Shown piece after piece: positions 1-5,333 of a DNA stretch of 5,333 nt. Position 1 is the stretch's first letter, and each line of letters starts with the position of its first letter. Source of the stretch: JACPSX01 sp035288405 [NCBI: bacterium] (GTDB lineage Bacteria; JACPSX01); the NCBI GenBank assembly GCA_035288405.1, contig DATEAK010000052.1, positions 1-5,333 on the forward strand, in the 5' to 3' direction. The notes under the pieces are model-generated. The model was given only the letters and a program-made list of their open reading frames with translations. It had not been told where the DNA came from and did no database searches. The position numbers were made by a program, and so were the translations under genes.

Positions 1-941
1 TGTACGAGGACGAAACGCCGGCGGAATTCCGAGTAAAGCTCAAGGAATCTCTCTACGGCCCACAGGCGCTCGAGAATCCCCTTGGTGTAATCCAGACGCT
101 CCACCCCCAGGGCCATGACTTCGCAATGAAGATCACGGCGGATCTTTTCCGCCCTGTGCGACGTTTGGGGCTGTCTCACGATCCTTTCGTGGTAATCCAC
201 GTCCACCCCCACGGGGAAGGCCCTGACGGCCGTCGTGTGGCCCTTGTAATGGACCAGGCGGTCCCGCCGGTCCACTTCGGCCCCAAGAATCTGGGCCGCG
301 CAGTCGAGAAAATTGCTGACGTACAAATCCAGGTGAAAGCCGAGCAACGTACTGCCCAGCAGTCCCTGAAGAATTTCCGCACGCCACGGCAACGCCCGAA
401 AGACATCCGGATGAGGAAACGGAATGTGCCAAAAAAAAGCGACTCGAGACCTCGGCTTCTGCTCCCGGAGCAGACGGGGGACCAGAGCCAGATGATAATC
501 GTGAACCCAGGTGAAGTCGTGGTCGCGCAATTCCACCAGGACGGAATCGGCGAACTTTCGATTTACCCGCTCGTAAGCCTTCCATTGGCTCGTGGAGAAC
601 CGGCAGCGCCCGAGAAAATAGTGGCACAGAGGCCACAGAACCGTGTTGGAAAACCCGTAGTAGAACTCGGTCACGTCTTTCTGGCTGAGGGCGATGAACT
701 TGACCTGGTACCGGGGATCTTCTTCGGGGATGTAGATGGATCCGATCTCGCGCTCCACCTCTCCCTCTCCCCAACCCAGCCACATTCCCCCCTGGGTGAG
801 CAGAACGGGTTCCAGGGCGGAGACCATACCGCCGATGGTCTTTTCAAGACGGCGCCCGTCCTTCCCCATCCGCAGTACGTAAGGCGTCCGGTTGGAAACG
901 ATGAGGAGACGGCTGTCACCGGGAAGGCCGTTCATCGTCAC
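1..941 (-). CDS. otsA: Trehalose-6-phosphate synthase (GT20), C-terminus cut off by window edge
   Basis: Cytoplasmic retaining glycosyltransferase that joins NDP-glucose and glucose-6-phosphate into trehalose-6-phosphate. The 313 codons present (usual length about 470-480) carry family motifs in order: RLLIVSNR (res 11-18), GGMVSAL (37-43, the glycine loop for the sugar nucleotide), WLGWGEGE (54-61), WVHDYHLALVPRLLRE (145-160), FFWHIPFPHPDVFRALPWR (169-187), GFHLDLY (201-207), and VERLDYTKGI (280-289), whose Arg and Lys bind phosphate in E. coli OtsA. The NDP-sugar-binding C-terminal part lies beyond the left edge. An in-frame TGA at 945-947 leaves only GTG 941 or ATG 935 as start. I chose GTG 941 because GGGAGG (951-956) sits 9 nt before it and 15 nt before the ATG. 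It lies 153 nt downstream of the membrane-protein gene on the same strand and could be the third gene of that operon. A trehalose-phosphatase is expected nearby but is not visible. Confidence 0.95.
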   Translation of the reverse strand, partial: MTMNGLPGDSRLLIVSNRTPYVLRMGKDGRRLEKTIGGMVSALEPVLLTQGGMWLGWGEGEVEREIGSIYIPEEDPRYQVKFIALSQKDVTEFYYGFSNTVLWPLCHYFLGRCRFSTSQWKAYERVNRKFADSVLVELRDHDFTWVHDYHLALVPRLLREQKPRSRVAFFWHIPFPHPDVFRALPWRAEILQGLLGSTLLGFHLDLYVSNFLDCAAQILGAEVDRRDRLVHYKGHTTAVRAFPVGVDVDYHERIVRQPQTSHRAEKIRRDLHCEVMALGVERLDYTKGILERLWAVERFLELYSEFRRRFVLV

Positions 942-970
942 GGTTCAGATCCTCCCGTTTCTTGGCCTGA

Positions 971-999
971 CCGGCAATGAATGCCGGCGAGAGCCGGCA
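971..999 (-). promoter_or_regulatory. Three-segment alternative hairpin in the otsA leader
   Basis: On the plus strand CCGGCA (971-976), TGCCGGC (982-988) and GCCGGCA (993-999) lie within 29 nt. The middle segment can pair with the left one (6 bp, 5-nt loop) or with the right one (7 bp, 4-nt loop), but not both. In the otsA transcript the structure ends 29 nt before the chosen GTG start and 14 nt before the Shine-Dalgarno GGGAGG. No T-tract follows either stem, so it is not a standard intrinsic terminator. It could be an mRNA processing or stability element, a translation-modulating leader, or a chance GC-rich repeat. The rest of the 942-1094 spacer shows no convincing gene or promoter. Confidence 0.35.
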
Positions 1000-1094
1000 C
1001 CGGGTAGAGAGACCTGCAGTGCGAAGGCATCTAAGATGACGTTTCCAACCATGAACATCCGTTCTCCCTGGCAGCGGAGATCGCGATTACCCGC

Positions 1095-1808
1095 TTAGAG
1101 GTGAGAGAACTCGTCTTTTTTCTCCGGGCCTGAGGACTCTCCGCCGCCCAGATGCTCCTCCAAAAATGCCCGAGCCCTGTCCCGGGCGCCCAGTCCGAAA
1201 GCCAAAGCCAGGGCCAGGACGACCCCACCGAACGTGATGGAGAAGGCGACCACGATGAGGTTGTAGGCCAGGCCCAGTTGCTCGAGGGCCATGGCCGCCG
1301 TAAAGGCCAGTATGCCGCCCCGCACTCCCCGGGCGATCCAGCGAGCCTGGCGTATGTTTGCGTTGACGGCGGCGATGAGGGCGGCGCGGCCGATGAAATT
1401 GCCGAGTAAGAATCCGATGAAGAGGATGACCAGAGCCACGACCAGGTTGGGGAGAAAGGCAAAGAAACCCGAGGTGAGCCGGTCCGTGGCCTTGATCCCC
1501 AGAGCGTCCAGGGCGGCGACCAGAAAAATGACCAGGGAAGTCCAGTACACGGCCCGCCCGAGAAACAGCGAGGGGGTTTCGCCGAGGGCCCCGCCGAGTA
1601 GGGTATTGGAAAAGCCCAGGCGTTGACTGTGCTGGTCGGTCTTGCCCGCCTTCAACAGACGAATGGTGAGCCACCGGATCAGCAGAGAGACCAGGAAGCC
1701 GACGGCGGCGATCGTGAGGGCGCTGAGCAGGTTGGGGAGGAACAGGGTGAGCTTTTCTGCAAAGAGACGCAGAGAATCACCGAATACCCGGGTAAGGAAA
1801 TCCCACAT
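1095..1808 (-). CDS. Conserved-TM-helix membrane protein, mechanosensitive-channel-like (CmpX type)
   Basis: Polytopic inner-membrane protein of 237 aa with about five hydrophobic segments (roughly res 24-50, 83-103, 119-143, 164-180 and 183-205). An internal duplication is plain: FLPNLLSALTIAAVGFL (23-39) and FLPNLVVALVILFIGFL (118-134), offset by 95 residues, each followed by an Arg-bearing amphipathic stretch. The final helix ends in AFGLGARDRARAFLEEHL (203-220), the Gly/Arg-rich exit typical of conserved-TM-helix proteins related to MscS/CmpX. The soluble beta domain of true MscS is absent and the protein ends in a short charged tail. The ATG lies 2 nt after the stop of the glycosyltransferase gene. 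Its ribosome site (GGGAGG) lies inside the last codons of that gene, so the two are likely translationally coupled. The family name is from memory of the motif. Channel activity or turgor sensing is inference from family and context. Confidence 0.8.
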   Translation of the reverse strand: MWDFLTRVFGDSLRLFAEKLTLFLPNLLSALTIAAVGFLVSLLIRWLTIRLLKAGKTDQHSQRLGFSNTLLGGALGETPSLFLGRAVYWTSLVIFLVAALDALGIKATDRLTSGFFAFLPNLVVALVILFIGFLLGNFIGRAALIAAVNANIRQARWIARGVRGGILAFTAAMALEQLGLAYNLIVVAFSITFGGVVLALALAFGLGARDRARAFLEEHLGGGESSGPEKKDEFSHL

Positions 1809-1810
1809 GA

Positions 1811-3094
1811 TTATTTCCTCCCTTCCTCAGGGCCGCTTTTTCGCCAGCGCTCTCTGAGGTAACTTTTCTGGATTTCGAACGTCAAAGCAAGATCCTCGAT
1901 GGCTTCCTCGGCTTCCTCCGGAGTGCTGTCCCGGGTGGCGAGGACATGGGAGGCGGTCTTGGCCAGATAGAGGGGGACGAGGGATTTGATCAGGTGATCC
2001 CGGTTCATGGCCTTAGTATGATAAGCCAGGGCGAATTCGTAGATGAGGATGGCCCACAGCTCATCATCGAGACAGAAGTGCTCCGGGGAAGCTTGTCCCA
2101 CCTGAGTGAACCGGTCGACAATTTCCGGTGCAAGGAATGTTTTCCACAGAGGAGACAGCTCTCGCAAGCCCAGCCGGAATTTCTCGATCATCAGGTCGAC
2201 GTTTACGTGCACGGGTTCGGAGCCCACTGCGTACGGGAACCCGAAAAGTGGAACGGAGACGGAACCGTCGACCAGATCCCAGGAAGCCGCAAAGGTTTCC
2301 ATCAGGCTGAAAACGGAACCCACCACCTGGGTCATCATGGTGCCCAGGTGAACACCGGGATCTTTCGCATCGTGTATCTTGGCGCCAAGAAAGGACTGGC
2401 AGATATTGGCCTTGCTGGCTAGGGCGATCGTGGTCATCCAGATGTCGATTCCGAAGCGAGCCACATCGGAGTCCCAGACATCCCGGCTTAGAAACTCGTC
2501 CACCAGCTTTTGCGAAAAACCAAAGTCGCCGCCGATGGGCTGGCGAATCCGCTTTCCGTACAGAGCCCGGGTCAGAGGGTACACGATCGTGTTCGTAATC
2601 GTGCCGTCGTATTTGTGGCGCATGTAGAGGGGAGATACGTAATCGAAATTTCGGGACAGGATGGGACTCAGGAGAAGCTCCATCCACTCGGGTGTGATGC
2701 TGCGCAGGTCTGAATCCACAACGGCGCAGGCCTTTACCTGAAGAGCCTGGGCGATTTCGAAAATCGTGCGAAACGAGCTCCCTTTCCCCGGGATTCCGTG
2801 ATAGGGGGTGATGATTTTCTCCAGGGAATTTCCGGGAAGTTGGATGAGAAGAGACTGGAGATCGGCCAAGGTTGCACTGCGCACGGCATCCTGCGTGCCG
2901 TCATTGGATCCCCCATCAGAGTTGACCAGCACGGTCTTGCAGGAGGGGAAATATTTCGCCAAGCCGGCGTTCACGGCCCGCACGACATGGGAGATCGTCT
3001 TGGAGTTGTTGTAGCTCGGAATACCGACCAGTATGTCGGCCTTGCCGATTCGGGCGATCGCCTGTTCTCTGTCTTCTGCGAGTTGTTCGGGCAT
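1811..3094 (-). CDS. GT-A glycosyltransferase, mannosylglycerate / glucosyl-3-phosphoglycerate synthase-like (GT78/GT81-related)
   Basis: Cytoplasmic 427-aa glycosyltransferase, predicted to transfer a hexose from a nucleotide sugar to glycerate or 3-phosphoglycerate, giving a compatible solute. Motifs in order: GIPSYNNSKTI (24-34) and NSDGGSNDGT (58-67) for nucleotide binding; PGKG (102-105); DSDL (127-130) as the metal-binding DxD; PEW (135-137); QPIGGDFGFS (185-194), matching the QPLGGE/QPLSGE acceptor loop of the two families; FGIDIWMTT (214-222); and KIHDAKDPG (239-247) with a likely metal-ligand His. A helical C-terminal region with DELWAILIYEFALAYHT (344-360) resembles the C-terminal domain of Rhodothermus mannosylglycerate synthase. 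I chose ATG 3094 because AGGA lies 8 nt upstream; an in-frame GTG at 3190 adds 32 atypical residues. It is the first gene of the minus-strand set and is closely followed by the TM protein. Donor and acceptor cannot be decided from sequence alone. No transmembrane segments are seen, which argues against a polyprenol-linked enzyme. Confidence 0.8.
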   Translation of the reverse strand: MPEQLAEDREQAIARIGKADILVGIPSYNNSKTISHVVRAVNAGLAKYFPSCKTVLVNSDGGSNDGTQDAVRSATLADLQSLLIQLPGNSLEKIITPYHGIPGKGSSFRTIFEIAQALQVKACAVVDSDLRSITPEWMELLLSPILSRNFDYVSPLYMRHKYDGTITNTIVYPLTRALYGKRIRQPIGGDFGFSQKLVDEFLSRDVWDSDVARFGIDIWMTTIALASKANICQSFLGAKIHDAKDPGVHLGTMMTQVVGSVFSLMETFAASWDLVDGSVSVPLFGFPYAVGSEPVHVNVDLMIEKFRLGLRELSPLWKTFLAPEIVDRFTQVGQASPEHFCLDDELWAILIYEFALAYHTKAMNRDHLIKSLVPLYLAKTASHVLATRDSTPEEAEEAIEDLALTFEIQKSYLRERWRKSGPEEGRK

Positions 3095-3327: not shown

Positions 3328-3459
3328 ATGAAGAAGTTTGAAACAGAAGTTCATCTGAGCCGGGAGATGGGCCTCCTCGACGTCACCCTGATCGGAGTCG
3401 GTGCCATGATCGGTGCCGGCATCTTTGTGCTTACCGGCATTGCCGCCGGATTCGGTTGA
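3328..3459 (+). pseudogene. 5' remnant of an APC-superfamily amino-acid permease
   Basis: This 43-codon reading frame starts MKKFETEVHLSREMGLLDVT and continues into GVGAMIGAGIFVLTGIAAG (res 23-41). This is the conserved pre-helix and first unwound membrane helix of amino-acid/cationic-amino-acid permeases, which coordinate substrate with the GAGIF backbone. Full-length relatives have about 12 helices and more than 400 residues. Here the match ends after IAAG with FG and a TGA stop. None of the following sequence in any frame resembles a permease, and the intact hydrolase gene ends only 110 nt further on, so the remainder is missing rather than frameshifted. The ribosome site is weak (GGA 11 nt upstream); an upstream in-frame GTG at 3271 gives a non-conserved extension. 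A functional 43-aa membrane peptide is possible but less likely than decay. Confidence 0.8.
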
Positions 3460-3569: not shown

Positions 3570-4235
3570 CTACTCTTTGCTGAGAACCTCGACCGGGCAA
3601 GCTTTGACCAAATTCTTGAACTTGCGGGCATCCTCGTCCGAGCCCACGATGGTTCCATAGTGCATGGGGATCGCCAGCTTGGGCGCCAGCCGATCGGTTG
3701 CCTGGGCGGCCTCCTCAGCGGTCATAACGTACGTGCCGCTCACCGGGATAAGAGCCACATCGATATTCTTCACTGCGCCCATCTCCTCGGTAAAATCGCT
3801 GTCCCCCGTGTGGTAGATGCTCACGCCTCCCATCTTCACGATGAAACCCACTTTTCCATCCGCTTTGGGGTGGAAGGGAATCCCCGGCTCGCGAAACTTG
3901 TTCGTGTTGTACGCGGGAACCATTGTGAGCTCGACCCCATTGAGTTTGAGGCTCTGACCCGGGGACACGATGCGGATTTCCTTGGCGTTGACTTGCCCCT
4001 TCAGTTTTTCCTCGCATGACTTGATGGTTAAGATGACCGTTCCCGGTCCGCACACCTTCTTGGCGTCCTCCGGGCTGCAGTGATCCATGTGCTCGTGAGA
4101 GATCAGAAGATAATCCGCGGGCTCCAGGTTTGTGGCTGTAATCTTGAACGGATCCACGTAGATGGTCTTCTCGCCTTTGATTCGGAACCCATCGTGTCCC
4201 AGCCAGCTGATCTTCACTCCCTTGTATTCGTACAT
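3570..4235 (-). CDS. Metallo-beta-lactamase-fold metal-dependent hydrolase (UlaG/UPF0173 type)
   Basis: Cytoplasmic 221-aa protein with no signal peptide, the usual length for the short UlaG-like/UPF0173 branch. The opening VKISWLGHDGFRI (7-19) holds the early LGH motif (H14). The metal site is HEHMDH (47-52, pattern HxHxDH). Further candidate ligands are D145 in HTGDSDF (142-148) and H192 in PMHYGT (190-195). YNTNKFREPGIPFHPK (109-124) followed by GKVGFIV matches the conserved substrate-side loop of this branch. The start at ATG 4235 is firmly set by AAGGAGGT (4241-4248), 5 nt upstream. The substrate is unknown: relatives include UlaG lactonase, but most members are uncharacterised. It lies 171 nt downstream of the flavoprotein gene on the same strand and may share its transcript. 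No specific pathway link is visible. Confidence 0.9.
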   Translation of the reverse strand: MYEYKGVKISWLGHDGFRIKGEKTIYVDPFKITATNLEPADYLLISHEHMDHCSPEDAKKVCGPGTVILTIKSCEEKLKGQVNAKEIRIVSPGQSLKLNGVELTMVPAYNTNKFREPGIPFHPKADGKVGFIVKMGGVSIYHTGDSDFTEEMGAVKNIDVALIPVSGTYVMTAEEAAQATDRLAPKLAIPMHYGTIVGSDEDARKFKNLVKACPVEVLSKE

Positions 4236-4325
4236 TGCGCACCTCCTTGGACTGTTTATGAAAGAGGCCCCCACCAGTTCCCTTACTATGGACGTAAAAT
4301 GTTTTCGAACTGACGGATTCTGCTA

Positions 4326-4406: not shown

Positions 4407-5333
4407 CTATGACAAGCGGAAGACGTCCGCAAACGGAGAGCGGACTTTTTCCCTCTTGGGCGGGTGGATCCGATAGCGATCCAGAGGAACCTCCCAGTAA
4501 TCGATGGTCTCCCGATCGGCGTCCGTGCGCTTCATCAAAAGCCACTTAAGCCCGTTCTCGTCGTCTCGGAACGGGTAGTCCTCCCGGAACAAGTTCCCCC
4601 GGCTCTCCTGCCGCGTTTCCATGGCCTTTACGGCCAGTTCGGAAAGTCGCAAGAAGCTGACCGCCTCGTTGGCCTTCACGAGTTCATGGGTGTCCGGAGC
4701 CGATACCTGGGGAAGAACCTCTTCGCGCAGTTCCTTTAATTGCTGCCGGACCTCGGCCAGCCGTGCAGCGTTCGGGAAGAGACTGTTGCGGGCCGGCCCG
4801 AAAATCCGGCTCACGCCATGGAAGATGTCGAATCCCCGCACCTGGGAAATGCGATGAAGGGGGGCCAGGACTTCTTCCCGCAGGGCCTGGGACTGTGCAG
4901 TCTGCACCGGGGCGGTGCCCGCTTCCTTGGCAAATTTCGCGGCCCGTTCCCCAGCCCGGTAACCGCTCACGTTCGCGAATGTGGAGGGAGCGCTGGCAAT
5001 GGAACCCGCGGCGTTGTGGGGGAGATTGCTGGCAAAACCCACGGCAAAAAGCCCCTCCACTCCGGTCCGGCAATCCAGATCAATCCGGATCCCGGTGCCA
5101 TGGCGGCTTCCCAGGGTCACGTAGGCGTTCGTTTCCAGAGGTTTCGTGCGCGGGTCCAAGTGAAACTCTTTGAGAGCTCCCGTGAAAAACGGCACCACGC
5201 GCTCCAGATCTTTCAGGTCTTCCTCGGTGAAGTTTCTCATGTCGAAATAGCAGGGACCTCTCCCCTCCAGGTTTTCGACGGCAATGGCCCGCACGATGGT
5301 CCCCAGGCTGGTAAGCTCCATCCACTTGGGATC
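4407..5333 (-). CDS. FAD-dependent oxidoreductase, fumarate reductase/SdhA/AprA superfamily flavoprotein, N-terminus beyond window edge
   Basis: C-terminal 308 residues of a flavoprotein whose family is usually 550-650 aa long; the Rossmann FAD-binding N-terminus lies outside. Starting from the edge, WMELTSLGTIVRAIAVENLEGRG (4-26) corresponds to the SdhA/FrdA segment with 'RDVVSRAI...EGRG'. GVEGLFAVGFASNLPHNAAGS (91-111) is the second FAD-contacting segment (GLYAVGE in SdhA). ETRQESRGNLFREDYPFRDDENGLKWL matches the C-terminal helical 'ESRGxHxREDxPxRDDxxW' signature. The catalytic His and Arg of true fumarate reductases (HYTMGG and NRLGSNS) are not found in the equivalent places. The PHNAAGS stretch looks more like adenylylsulfate reductase alpha (PHKFSSGS). 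The redox substrate is therefore unresolved. An iron-sulfur partner might lie upstream beyond the right edge. The stop is at 4407 and the hydrolase gene follows 171 nt downstream. Confidence 0.85.
   Translation of the reverse strand, partial: DPKWMELTSLGTIVRAIAVENLEGRGPCYFDMRNFTEEDLKDLERVVPFFTGALKEFHLDPRTKPLETNAYVTLGSRHGTGIRIDLDCRTGVEGLFAVGFASNLPHNAAGSIASAPSTFANVSGYRAGERAAKFAKEAGTAPVQTAQSQALREEVLAPLHRISQVRGFDIFHGVSRIFGPARNSLFPNAARLAEVRQQLKELREEVLPQVSAPDTHELVKANEAVSFLRLSELAVKAMETRQESRGNLFREDYPFRDDENGLKWLLMKRTDADRETIDYWEVPLDRYRIHPPKREKVRSPFADVFRLS

What the first reader, a model, noticed from the sequence alone, without database searches (positions are those of the whole stretch)
1..3094. Candidate compatible-solute operon: glycosylglycerate-type synthase, TM-helix channel-like protein and trehalose-6-phosphate synthase
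Three same-strand genes combine a GT78/GT81-like glycosyltransferase, a conserved-TM-helix membrane protein with 2-nt spacing, and OtsA. Each family is individually linked to osmotic stress. A unit coupling two solute synthases with a possible turgor-responsive membrane protein would be a coherent osmoadaptation module. I do not know of this exact trio as a described system.
Basis: partly seen in the sequence, partly recalled or inferred. Interest (0 to 1): 0.6.

Follow-up and report, generated by a model that had tools for sequence, protein, structure and literature searches.

The report
Sugar-solute enzyme paired with channel
Across several bacterial phyla a gene for an enzyme that probably makes a protective sugar-acid solute sits beside a gene for a shortened pressure-sensitive channel, which suggests that making the solute and releasing it are coupled; the third gene of the trio, for trehalose synthesis, is only an occasional neighbour.

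Summary
The three genes are real and placed as described: a GT78/GT81-like glycosyltransferase (GT1), a membrane protein (MSH) starting 2 nt later, and an OtsA N-terminus cut by the window edge. The trio is not a conserved system: OtsA was found in 5 of 80 related loci. The GT1-MSH pair is. MSH follows GT1 in 80 of 80 fetched loci and in 77 of 81 GT1 copies from 148 Nitrospirota genomes. GT1 co-occurs with glucosyl-3-phosphoglycerate synthase (GpgS), is fused to it in three genomes, and often neighbours a mannosyl-3-phosphoglycerate-phosphatase-type HAD. MSH keeps only the MscS membrane part. Most unpaired paralogues end in a beta-type segment; MSH has instead a C-terminal peptide D[D/E]-hydrophobic-x-H-[L/I] (penultimate His in 77 of 80 paired copies, 0 of 16 unpaired). 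A GT1 branch that lost its catalytic residues is still paired with MSH and keeps one GT segment that the unpaired sister clade lacks, perhaps the docking site. Best reading: a glycosylglycerate-type solute synthase coupled, perhaps physically, to a beta-domain-less MscS-like channel. Product, channel activity and binding are untested.

The parts
1811..3094 (-). GT1: GT78/GT81-related glycosyltransferase, 427 aa, predicted glycosylglycerate-type synthase
   Evidence: fold: mannosylglycerate synthase Z 33.9, rmsd 3.5, 356 residues aligned; profile vs 2y4k E 5.3e-6; 80 related loci at 56-76% identity
2708..2716 (-). D-S-D (residues 127-129), the DXD-type metal site of GT1
   Evidence: D129 in 80 of 80 and D127 in 79 of 80 aligned sequences; aligned with D100/D102 of mannosylglycerate synthase
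2594..2620 (-). R159-x3-D163-x3-T167, equivalent to R131/D135/T139 of mannosylglycerate synthase (recalled as its glycerate site)
   Evidence: alignment; each residue in 80 of 80 sequences
1955..1999 (-). GT1 residues 366-380 (paired consensus EHLLKSLTPLYLGRT): candidate docking segment for the channel
   Evidence: top of 397 sliding windows: identity to the paired consensus 0.81 paired, 0.89 degenerate-but-paired, 0.45 unpaired sister clade
1095..1808 (-). MSH: membrane protein with two PF05552 repeats and no MscS beta-domain, 237 aa
   Evidence: PF05552 51.7 bits, no PF00924 at E<=0.1; downstream of GT1 in 80 of 80 loci
1119..1496 (-). MSH residues 105-230: MscS-like TM1-TM2-TM3 unit
   Evidence: the 11 best rows are all MscS: Z 8.3-10.3, rmsd 4.0-9.1, 83-126 residues, 21-29% identity; that tool warns that Z under about 13 can be chance for helical proteins
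1098..1115 (-). C-terminal peptide DEFSHL of MSH, after a variable charged linker
   Evidence: penultimate His in 77 of 80 GT-paired MSH, last residue L or I in 71 of 80; penultimate His in 0 of 16 unpaired paralogues
3..941 (-). OtsA (GT20) N-terminal 313 aa, cut by the window edge; occasional neighbour, not a core part of the module
   Evidence: PF00982 282.8 bits; 80% identical to the start of a 765-aa OtsA-OtsB protein in L001

Best explanation
GT1 and MSH form one osmoadaptation module. GT1 transfers a hexose in the glucosylglycerate pathway: either a second hexose onto glucosylglycerate made by GpgS and its phosphatase, or a hexose directly onto D-glycerate as mannosylglycerate synthase does. 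MSH is an MscS-derived channel reduced to its membrane part. It most likely opens on hypo-osmotic down-shift and lets the solute out. GT1 probably docks through its C-terminal helical domain onto the conserved C-terminal peptide of MSH, so synthase and valve are one complex. OtsA next door adds trehalose in this organism but is not a general part. Shown by computation: pairing, co-occurrence, the fusion, absence of the beta-domain, the tail motif, and retention of pairing by catalytically degenerate copies. Inferred: chemistry, channel activity, binding.
For: Pairing: 80 of 80 loci; 77 of 81 GT1 copies in 148 Nitrospirota genomes. Tree of 164 sequences: one clade of 127 (SH-like support 0.966) holds all 126 paired copies plus one unpaired; the sister clade of 29 has none. 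Pathway: GT1 in 67 and GpgS in 63 of 148 genomes, 62 shared (hypergeometric 2e-34, uncorrected for kinship). Of the five GT1 genomes without stand-alone GpgS, three carry a GpgS-GT1 fusion, GpgS half 412-417 bits vs cut-off 262; the other two (G094, G130) have only the degenerate GT1. Phosphatase-type HAD in 41 and glycerate kinase in 11 of 80 loci. Two clusters read gpgS-msh-HAD without GT1 (L109, L110). Channel: MscS fold match. Tail: 77 of 80 vs 0 of 16. Docking: 12 of 12 degenerate GT1 (second Asp of DXD and K104 lost) are paired with MSH, close pairs dN/dS 0.09-0.21, keep segment 366-380, and their MSH partners keep the tail, 13 of 13 including the partly degenerate L089.
Against: No assay, expression or interaction data. 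GT1 relatives of the sister clade lie next to the same pathway genes (for example L125, L134, L135) without MSH, so the chemistry does not need the channel. The closest relative of the window, G001, has neither a GpgS_Meth match nor a mannosyl-3-phosphoglycerate-phosphatase match; it is a metagenome-assembled genome of unknown completeness. Seven of 45 paired genomes lack a full-length GpgS_Meth match. MSH has no beta-domain, so gating could differ from MscS or it may not be a channel. One GT1 of the clade (L118) has no MSH within about 6 kb downstream. One of two GpgS-paired MSH lacks the tail (L110). The degenerate pairs evolve faster than the intact ones, and distant pairs reach dN/dS 0.37-0.52 near saturation. 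The docking segment was found by comparing clades, not by a structure of the complex.
Confidence: 0.55

Rival explanations
1. Co-regulated neighbours without physical contact: the channel is a dedicated release valve encoded beside its solute synthase, as MscS-type channels are in ectoine clusters.
For: Precedent stated in PMC13342039 (passage), which cites Czech 2022; conserved adjacency.
Against: Does not by itself explain the conserved C-terminal peptide or why catalytically degenerate GTs stay paired and keep one segment.
Confidence: 0.27
2. The GT feeds a glycolipid or an intracellular polysaccharide begun on glucosylglycerate (as mycobacterial GpgS begins methylglucose lipopolysaccharide), and MSH is a flippase or membrane anchor rather than an osmotic valve.
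For: GpgS starts methylglucose lipopolysaccharide in mycobacteria (PMC2674218 passages); GlgX, TreY and TreZ lie in some loci.
Against: The recurrent neighbours are a glycosylglycerate phosphatase family and glycerate kinase, with sugar-ABC-transporter-like genes in some loci; MSH matches MscS. Elongation or methylation genes were not searched for specifically.
Confidence: 0.1
3. The trio GT1-MSH-OtsA is a dedicated osmoadaptation operon.
For: OtsA directly downstream in the window and in L076, and 4.2 kb downstream in L001.
Against: OtsA found in 5 of 80 loci only; 153 bp gap with an inverted repeat between MSH and OtsA in the window.
Confidence: 0.06

Closest known systems
Mannosylglycerate synthase, GT78 (Rhodothermus marinus, PDB 2bo4/2bo7/2y4k; source organism recalled)
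   Same: Fold (Z 33.9, rmsd 3.5, 356 of 427 residues), DXD, R-x3-D-x3-T site, QPxGGD/E and GID motifs
   Different: 16-17% identity; no Pfam MGS_GT hit for the window protein at E<=0.001; its relatives co-occur with GpgS and are paired with a membrane protein
Glucosyl-3-phosphoglycerate synthase, GT81 (GpgS)
   Same: Related catalytic domain (Z up to 19.7); same gene neighbourhoods; natural GpgS-GT1 fusion
   Different: 50 bits against a cut-off of 262; separate clade that coexists with GpgS in the same genomes
MscS / CmpX-type mechanosensitive channel
   Same: PF05552 repeats and the TM1-TM3 unit; CmpX is described as an MscS homologue (PMC10965496 passages); that CmpX itself has the PF05552 architecture is recalled, not tested
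   Different: Beta-domain PF00924 not found; a linker and a conserved C-terminal peptide instead
Ectoine biosynthetic clusters with MscS-type channels (Czech 2022, known here only through PMC13342039)
   Same: Solute synthesis genes with a channel gene beside them
   Different: Different solute chemistry; here the pairing is near-invariant in its clade, the channel lacks the beta-domain, and the pairing outlasts loss of catalytic residues
Mannosylglucosylglycerate pathway of Petrotoga (enzymes recalled; PMC2832527 is not held; the pathway is mentioned in PMC3694870, passages)
   Same: GpgS followed by a second hexosyltransferase is the most economical place for GT1

Membership tests
GT78 mannosylglycerate synthase | Fold over most of the protein | tested here: met
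   Z 33.9, rmsd 3.5, 356 residues, model range 21-415
GT78 mannosylglycerate synthase | DXD and R-x3-D-x3-T acceptor-site residues | tested here: met
   the role of the triad is recalled
GT78 mannosylglycerate synthase | Match to the Pfam MGS_GT model (PF21969) | tested here: not met
   no hit at E<=0.001 for the window protein; the GT1 half of a GpgS-GT1 fusion scores 27.4 vs 27
GT78 mannosylglycerate synthase | Hexose transfer to D-glycerate | not testable with these tools
   needs an enzyme assay
GpgS (GT81; NF010496, NF040724) | Curated score cut-off | tested here: not met
   NF010496 50 bits vs 262; NF040724 not listed at E<=0.001
MscS channel family | Conserved TM helix PF05552 | tested here: met
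   51.7 bits vs 22, two stretches
MscS channel family | Cytosolic beta-domain PF00924 | tested here: not met
   absent at E<=0.1 in the window protein and at E<=0.01 in three other GT-paired MSH; found at E<=0.1 in 5 of the 7 unpaired paralogues scanned, 4 at or above cut-off
MscS channel family | Tension-gated conductance | not testable with these tools
   needs electrophysiology
OtsA trehalose-6-phosphate synthase (GT20) | PF00982 | tested here: met
   282.8 bits vs 32.5
OtsA trehalose-6-phosphate synthase (GT20) | TIGR02400 equivalog cut-off | tested here: inconclusive
   292.9 vs 564.85, but only 313 aa lie in the window
Conserved GT1-MSH-OtsA trio | Recurrence in related genomes | tested here: not met
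   OtsA in 5 of 80 loci; immediate neighbour in one

The most novel reading that the evidence does not exclude
An enzyme-capped mechanosensitive channel: a MscS-type pore lost its cytosolic beta-domain and recruited the solute synthase as its cytosolic subunit through a C-terminal peptide, so the enzyme that fills the cell with solute also reports on or gates the valve that empties it. In one Nitrospirota lineage the enzyme has become a catalytically dead, purely structural or regulatory channel subunit.
Probability: 0.3. Interest if true: 0.87.

Novelty: new variant of a known kind. Interest (0 to 1): 0.62.

Why it matters
Solute synthesis and mechanosensitive release are usually treated as separately acting systems. 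A near-invariant gene pair in Nitrospirota, Desulfobacterota, Acidobacteriota, Zixibacteria and others (by record title), with a short conserved peptide on the channel and a conserved segment on the enzyme, gives a concrete test of whether a cell couples making an osmolyte to letting it go. It also points to a glycosyltransferase clade in the glucosylglycerate pathway whose reaction is unknown to me, and to naturally beta-domain-less MscS-like proteins, useful for asking which parts of MscS are needed for gating.

Tried and rejected
Considered and rejected: OtsA as a core member (5 of 80 loci); GT1 as an ordinary GpgS (50 bits vs 262; separate clade); MSH as a complete MscS channel (no PF00924). 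The Foldseek search of MSH gave no match at E<=0.001; the MscS match rests and on weak profile hits (E 0.29 and above), and the VIA tool warns that helical proteins can reach such Z by chance. BAR-domain and chemoreceptor rows were taken as long-helix matches. No Rfam RNA over gathering score, no tRNA, no PHROG family for GT1 or MSH. Whether GT1 works directly on glycerate or as a second transferase stays open: co-occurrence and fusion with GpgS favour the second, the GT78 fold and the GpgS-less genome G001 the first. A direct comparison with the Persephonella or Petrotoga enzymes was not possible because the genomes open to the genome search are unnamed and the one scan of genome contigs was used. 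Ten literature searches showed no paper on a GT-channel pair of this kind in their listings; two searches listed only 15 of 29 and 10 of 15 papers, only open-licence papers are held, and apart from the passages and the section named in the report only listings were seen.

Limits of the counts. One search used 81 of the 86 GT1 rows (five fragments or weak rows dropped, which drops genome G046), 83 of 105 MSH rows (those over 240 bits) and 68 of 71 GpgS rows (the three fused proteins dropped; the G015 and G081 rows kept are partial). Phylum names of the three genome samples are read from the record titles of their centres (L043, L036, L024), not told by the tool. The 60 loci are the 30 fetched from each (best matches), not all rows. 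The tree labels come; fetched DNA reached only about 1.5 kb downstream, and one unpaired GT lay under 900 bp from its end, so its label is uncertain. L023 (split MSH) was left out of the tail count and of alignment A2; L075 (short GT1) was left out of alignment A1 and of the tree; L035, L045 and L061 were also not put into A2. Fifteen divergent Nitrospirota GT1 were examined: 12 degenerate and paired, one partly degenerate and paired (L089), two intact and unpaired (L091, L108). dN/dS used 16 of 66 (degenerate GT1), 14 of 66 (their MSH) and 16 of 36 pairs each for the intact genes; the others were saturated or too close. One of the 16 unpaired paralogues (in L048) lies just upstream of GpgS rather than behind a GT. 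An earlier count said 0 of 14 unpaired paralogues, 12 with a beta end; the correct counts are 16 and 14.
Full report
What is in the window. Three minus-strand genes fill 1-3094: GT1 (3094 to 1811, 427 aa), MSH (1808 to 1095, 237 aa, 2 nt after GT1) and the first 313 aa of OtsA (941 to the window edge). The GT is poorly recognised by sequence (PF00535 below cut-off; 50 bits to glucosyl-3-phosphoglycerate synthase against a cut-off of 262). Its AlphaFold2 model (mean pLDDT 86) matches mannosylglycerate synthase, GT78, over most of the chain (Z 33.9, rmsd 3.5, 356 residues) and GpgS, GT81, over less (Z up to 19.7, rmsd 2.9, 224 residues). The A1 profile ranks mannosylglycerate synthase first (E 5.3e-6) and aligns R159-x3-D163-x3-T167 with R131/D135/T139, which I recall as its glycerate-binding residues. 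They are invariant in 80 of 80 aligned sequences.

The pair, not the trio, is conserved. The genome-contig scan gave 80 loci at 56-76% identity, the best 80 of 585; by record title they are mostly Nitrospirota, with deltaproteobacteria, Acidobacteria, Zixibacteria, Aminicenantes, KSB1, Gallionellaceae and Tectomicrobia. MSH lies downstream on the same strand in 80 of 80, within 134 bp in 78; L023 has a split MSH. OtsA is seen in 5 of 80, next to MSH only in L076. In L001, the closest relative, sugar-ABC-transporter-like genes lie between MSH and a 765-aa OtsA-OtsB protein, which is followed by a TreT-like gene (380 bits vs cut-off 775). TreY or TreZ clusters occur in 9 of the 80 loci (one member of each scanned). 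I have no control for how often trehalose genes would be near by chance.

A less selected sample gives the same answer. In 148 genomes of the phylum of Nitrospira defluvii 81 GT1 copies were kept and 77 have MSH downstream. Of the four others, G093 is split over two contigs, G153 and G020 belong to the unpaired sister clade, and G076 is partial. Six of 83 MSH copies lack GT1 upstream. In five of these GpgS lies within 700 bp on the same contig (G112, G158, G081, G048, G093), though G048 and G093 start close to a contig end where GT1 may be cut; G043 has none. L109 and L110 (from G158 and G112) read gpgS-msh-HAD. In 60 loci from samples of 199 and 198 genomes of the phyla of L036 (Acidobacteria) and L024 (Syntrophorhabdaceae), 30 of 40 GT1 at or above 555 bits have MSH; 0 of 20 lower-scoring ones do. 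The ten high-scoring ones without MSH are L118 and nine of the sister clade.

Pathway context. Neighbours recurring in the 80 loci are a second GT in 42 (GpgS family; NF040724 327-376 bits in three scanned members, all under its cut-off of 700), an HAD of the mannosyl-3-phosphoglycerate phosphatase family in 41 (226.5 bits vs 164.75 for one scanned member) and a glycerate 2-kinase in 11 (one scanned: 244.6 bits, under the cut-off of 670, but PF13660 and PF05161 well over theirs). Across the 148 genomes GT1 is in 67, GpgS in 63, both in 62. The 63 genomes with a high-scoring GT1 (651 bits or more) all have a GpgS-type enzyme: 60 a separate one (two of them partial), and three (G019, G038, G047) a fusion whose N-terminal half passes the GpgS cut-off (412-417 vs 262 bits) and whose C-terminal half is GT1. 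G094 and G130 have only a degenerate GT1 and no GpgS. Among 45 paired genomes (46 of the 80 loci, chosen to leave out most Nitrospira; one also in the 148), 38 have a full-length GpgS_Meth match and 41 a phosphatase-family match, 38 of them over cut-off. The window's closest relative G001 has neither. GT1 relatives of the unpaired sister clade also lie beside GpgS, the HAD or glycerate kinase in several loci. I read this as a place in the glucosylglycerate pathway, with the exact step open.

The channel. MSH is predicted with five long helices (mean pLDDT 81, pTM 0.56). Its C-terminal half (105-230) matches TM1-TM3 of MscS (Z 8.3-10.3, rmsd 4.0-9.1, 83-126 residues, 21-29% identity). It has two PF05552 stretches and no PF00924; three other GT-paired MSH were also without PF00924. 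Sixteen paralogues not placed behind a GT were examined. Fourteen end in a beta-type segment by eye; seven of the sixteen were scanned, and PF00924 was found in five, four at or above cut-off. MSH instead ends in a variable charged linker and D[D/E]-hydrophobic-x-H-[L/I]. The penultimate residue is His in 77 of 80 GT-paired copies, in 13 of 13 copies paired with degenerate or partly degenerate GT1, in 3 of 3 next to the fusions and in 1 of 2 GpgS-paired copies, against 0 of 16 unpaired ones.

Pairing outlasts catalytic residues. A divergent GT1 group in the Nitrospirota sample has lost the second Asp of DXD and K104 in 12 of 12 members, and H241 in 11 of 12, yet all 12 are followed by MSH. Pairs at 62% identity or more have dN/dS 0.09-0.21 (their MSH partners at 72% or more 0.04-0.11), against medians of 0.017 and 0.021 for the intact pair; distant, nearly saturated pairs reach 0.37-0.52. 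So they are constrained, if less so. In a FastTree tree of 164 sequences one clade of 127 (SH-like support 0.966) contains all 126 paired GT1 (113 intact, 12 degenerate, one partly degenerate) and one unpaired (L118; no MSH found in L172); the 29-member sister clade is unpaired. The degenerate group sits inside the paired clade, but its exact position is weakly supported (0.69). Comparing the groups, K104, G105, D129, D163, Q185, I187 and H241 are among 16 columns kept in paired and sister enzymes and changed in the degenerate ones (D163 mostly to Glu). Nine columns go the other way, kept in paired and degenerate but not in sister enzymes, among them L313, A357, H367, K370 and L377. A scan of 397 windows puts 366-380 first (paired 0.81, degenerate 0.89, sister 0.45) and 310-324 second. 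A metal-independent activity of the degenerate GTs is not excluded.

Interpretation. Published: mechanosensitive channels release compatible solutes on down-shock (PMC11009771 section 4, read), and MscS-type channels are encoded in ectoine clusters (PMC13342039 passage, citing Czech 2022, which is not held). Against that background GT1-MSH is a solute synthase with its own valve. The tail peptide, the missing beta-domain and the segment retained in degenerate enzymes go further and suggest contact between the two proteins. This last step is inference from sequence. PMC11009771 was searched for the terms mechanosensitive, gene cluster, operon, GT81, Persephonella and glucosylglycerate synthase; only mechanosensitive occurred, once, in the general down-shock context.

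Verdict. I call it a new variant of a known kind, with a bolder reading (an enzyme-capped channel) that the data do not exclude.

Noticed in passing
window 3328-3459 (+): 43-aa N-terminal remnant of an APC-type amino-acid permease (BcaP-like, E 1.2e-9) ending in a stop: apparently a truncated gene between GT1 and the hydrolase gene.
   Followed up: partly
window 3570-4274 (-): Metallo-beta-lactamase-fold hydrolase (Lactamase_B_3, 113 bits; NCBIfam PRK00685 114.1 vs cut-off 144).
   Followed up: no
window 4407-5333 (-): C-terminal part of a fumarate reductase/succinate dehydrogenase-type flavoprotein, open at the window edge.
   Followed up: no
G003:C130:1545-3029 and G073:C1:275020-276510: Open frames of about 520 aa with several tandem MSH-like repeats, in a Zixibacteria genome and a genome of the Nitrospirota sample.
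   Followed up: no
L082, L083, L084: Natural fusion of an actinobacterial-type GpgS with GT1, 777-797 aa, in three genomes without stand-alone GpgS_Meth.
   Followed up: yes
L109:3665-6520 and L110:3520-6375: gpgS-msh-HAD gene clusters without GT1.
   Followed up: partly
window 982-999: Perfect 7-bp GC-rich inverted repeat with a 4-nt loop between MSH and OtsA, without a T-tract.
   Followed up: no
NF040724: No GpgS-type protein scored here reaches the family's curated cut-off of 700 bits (best about 386), so this model would not name any of them.
   Followed up: no
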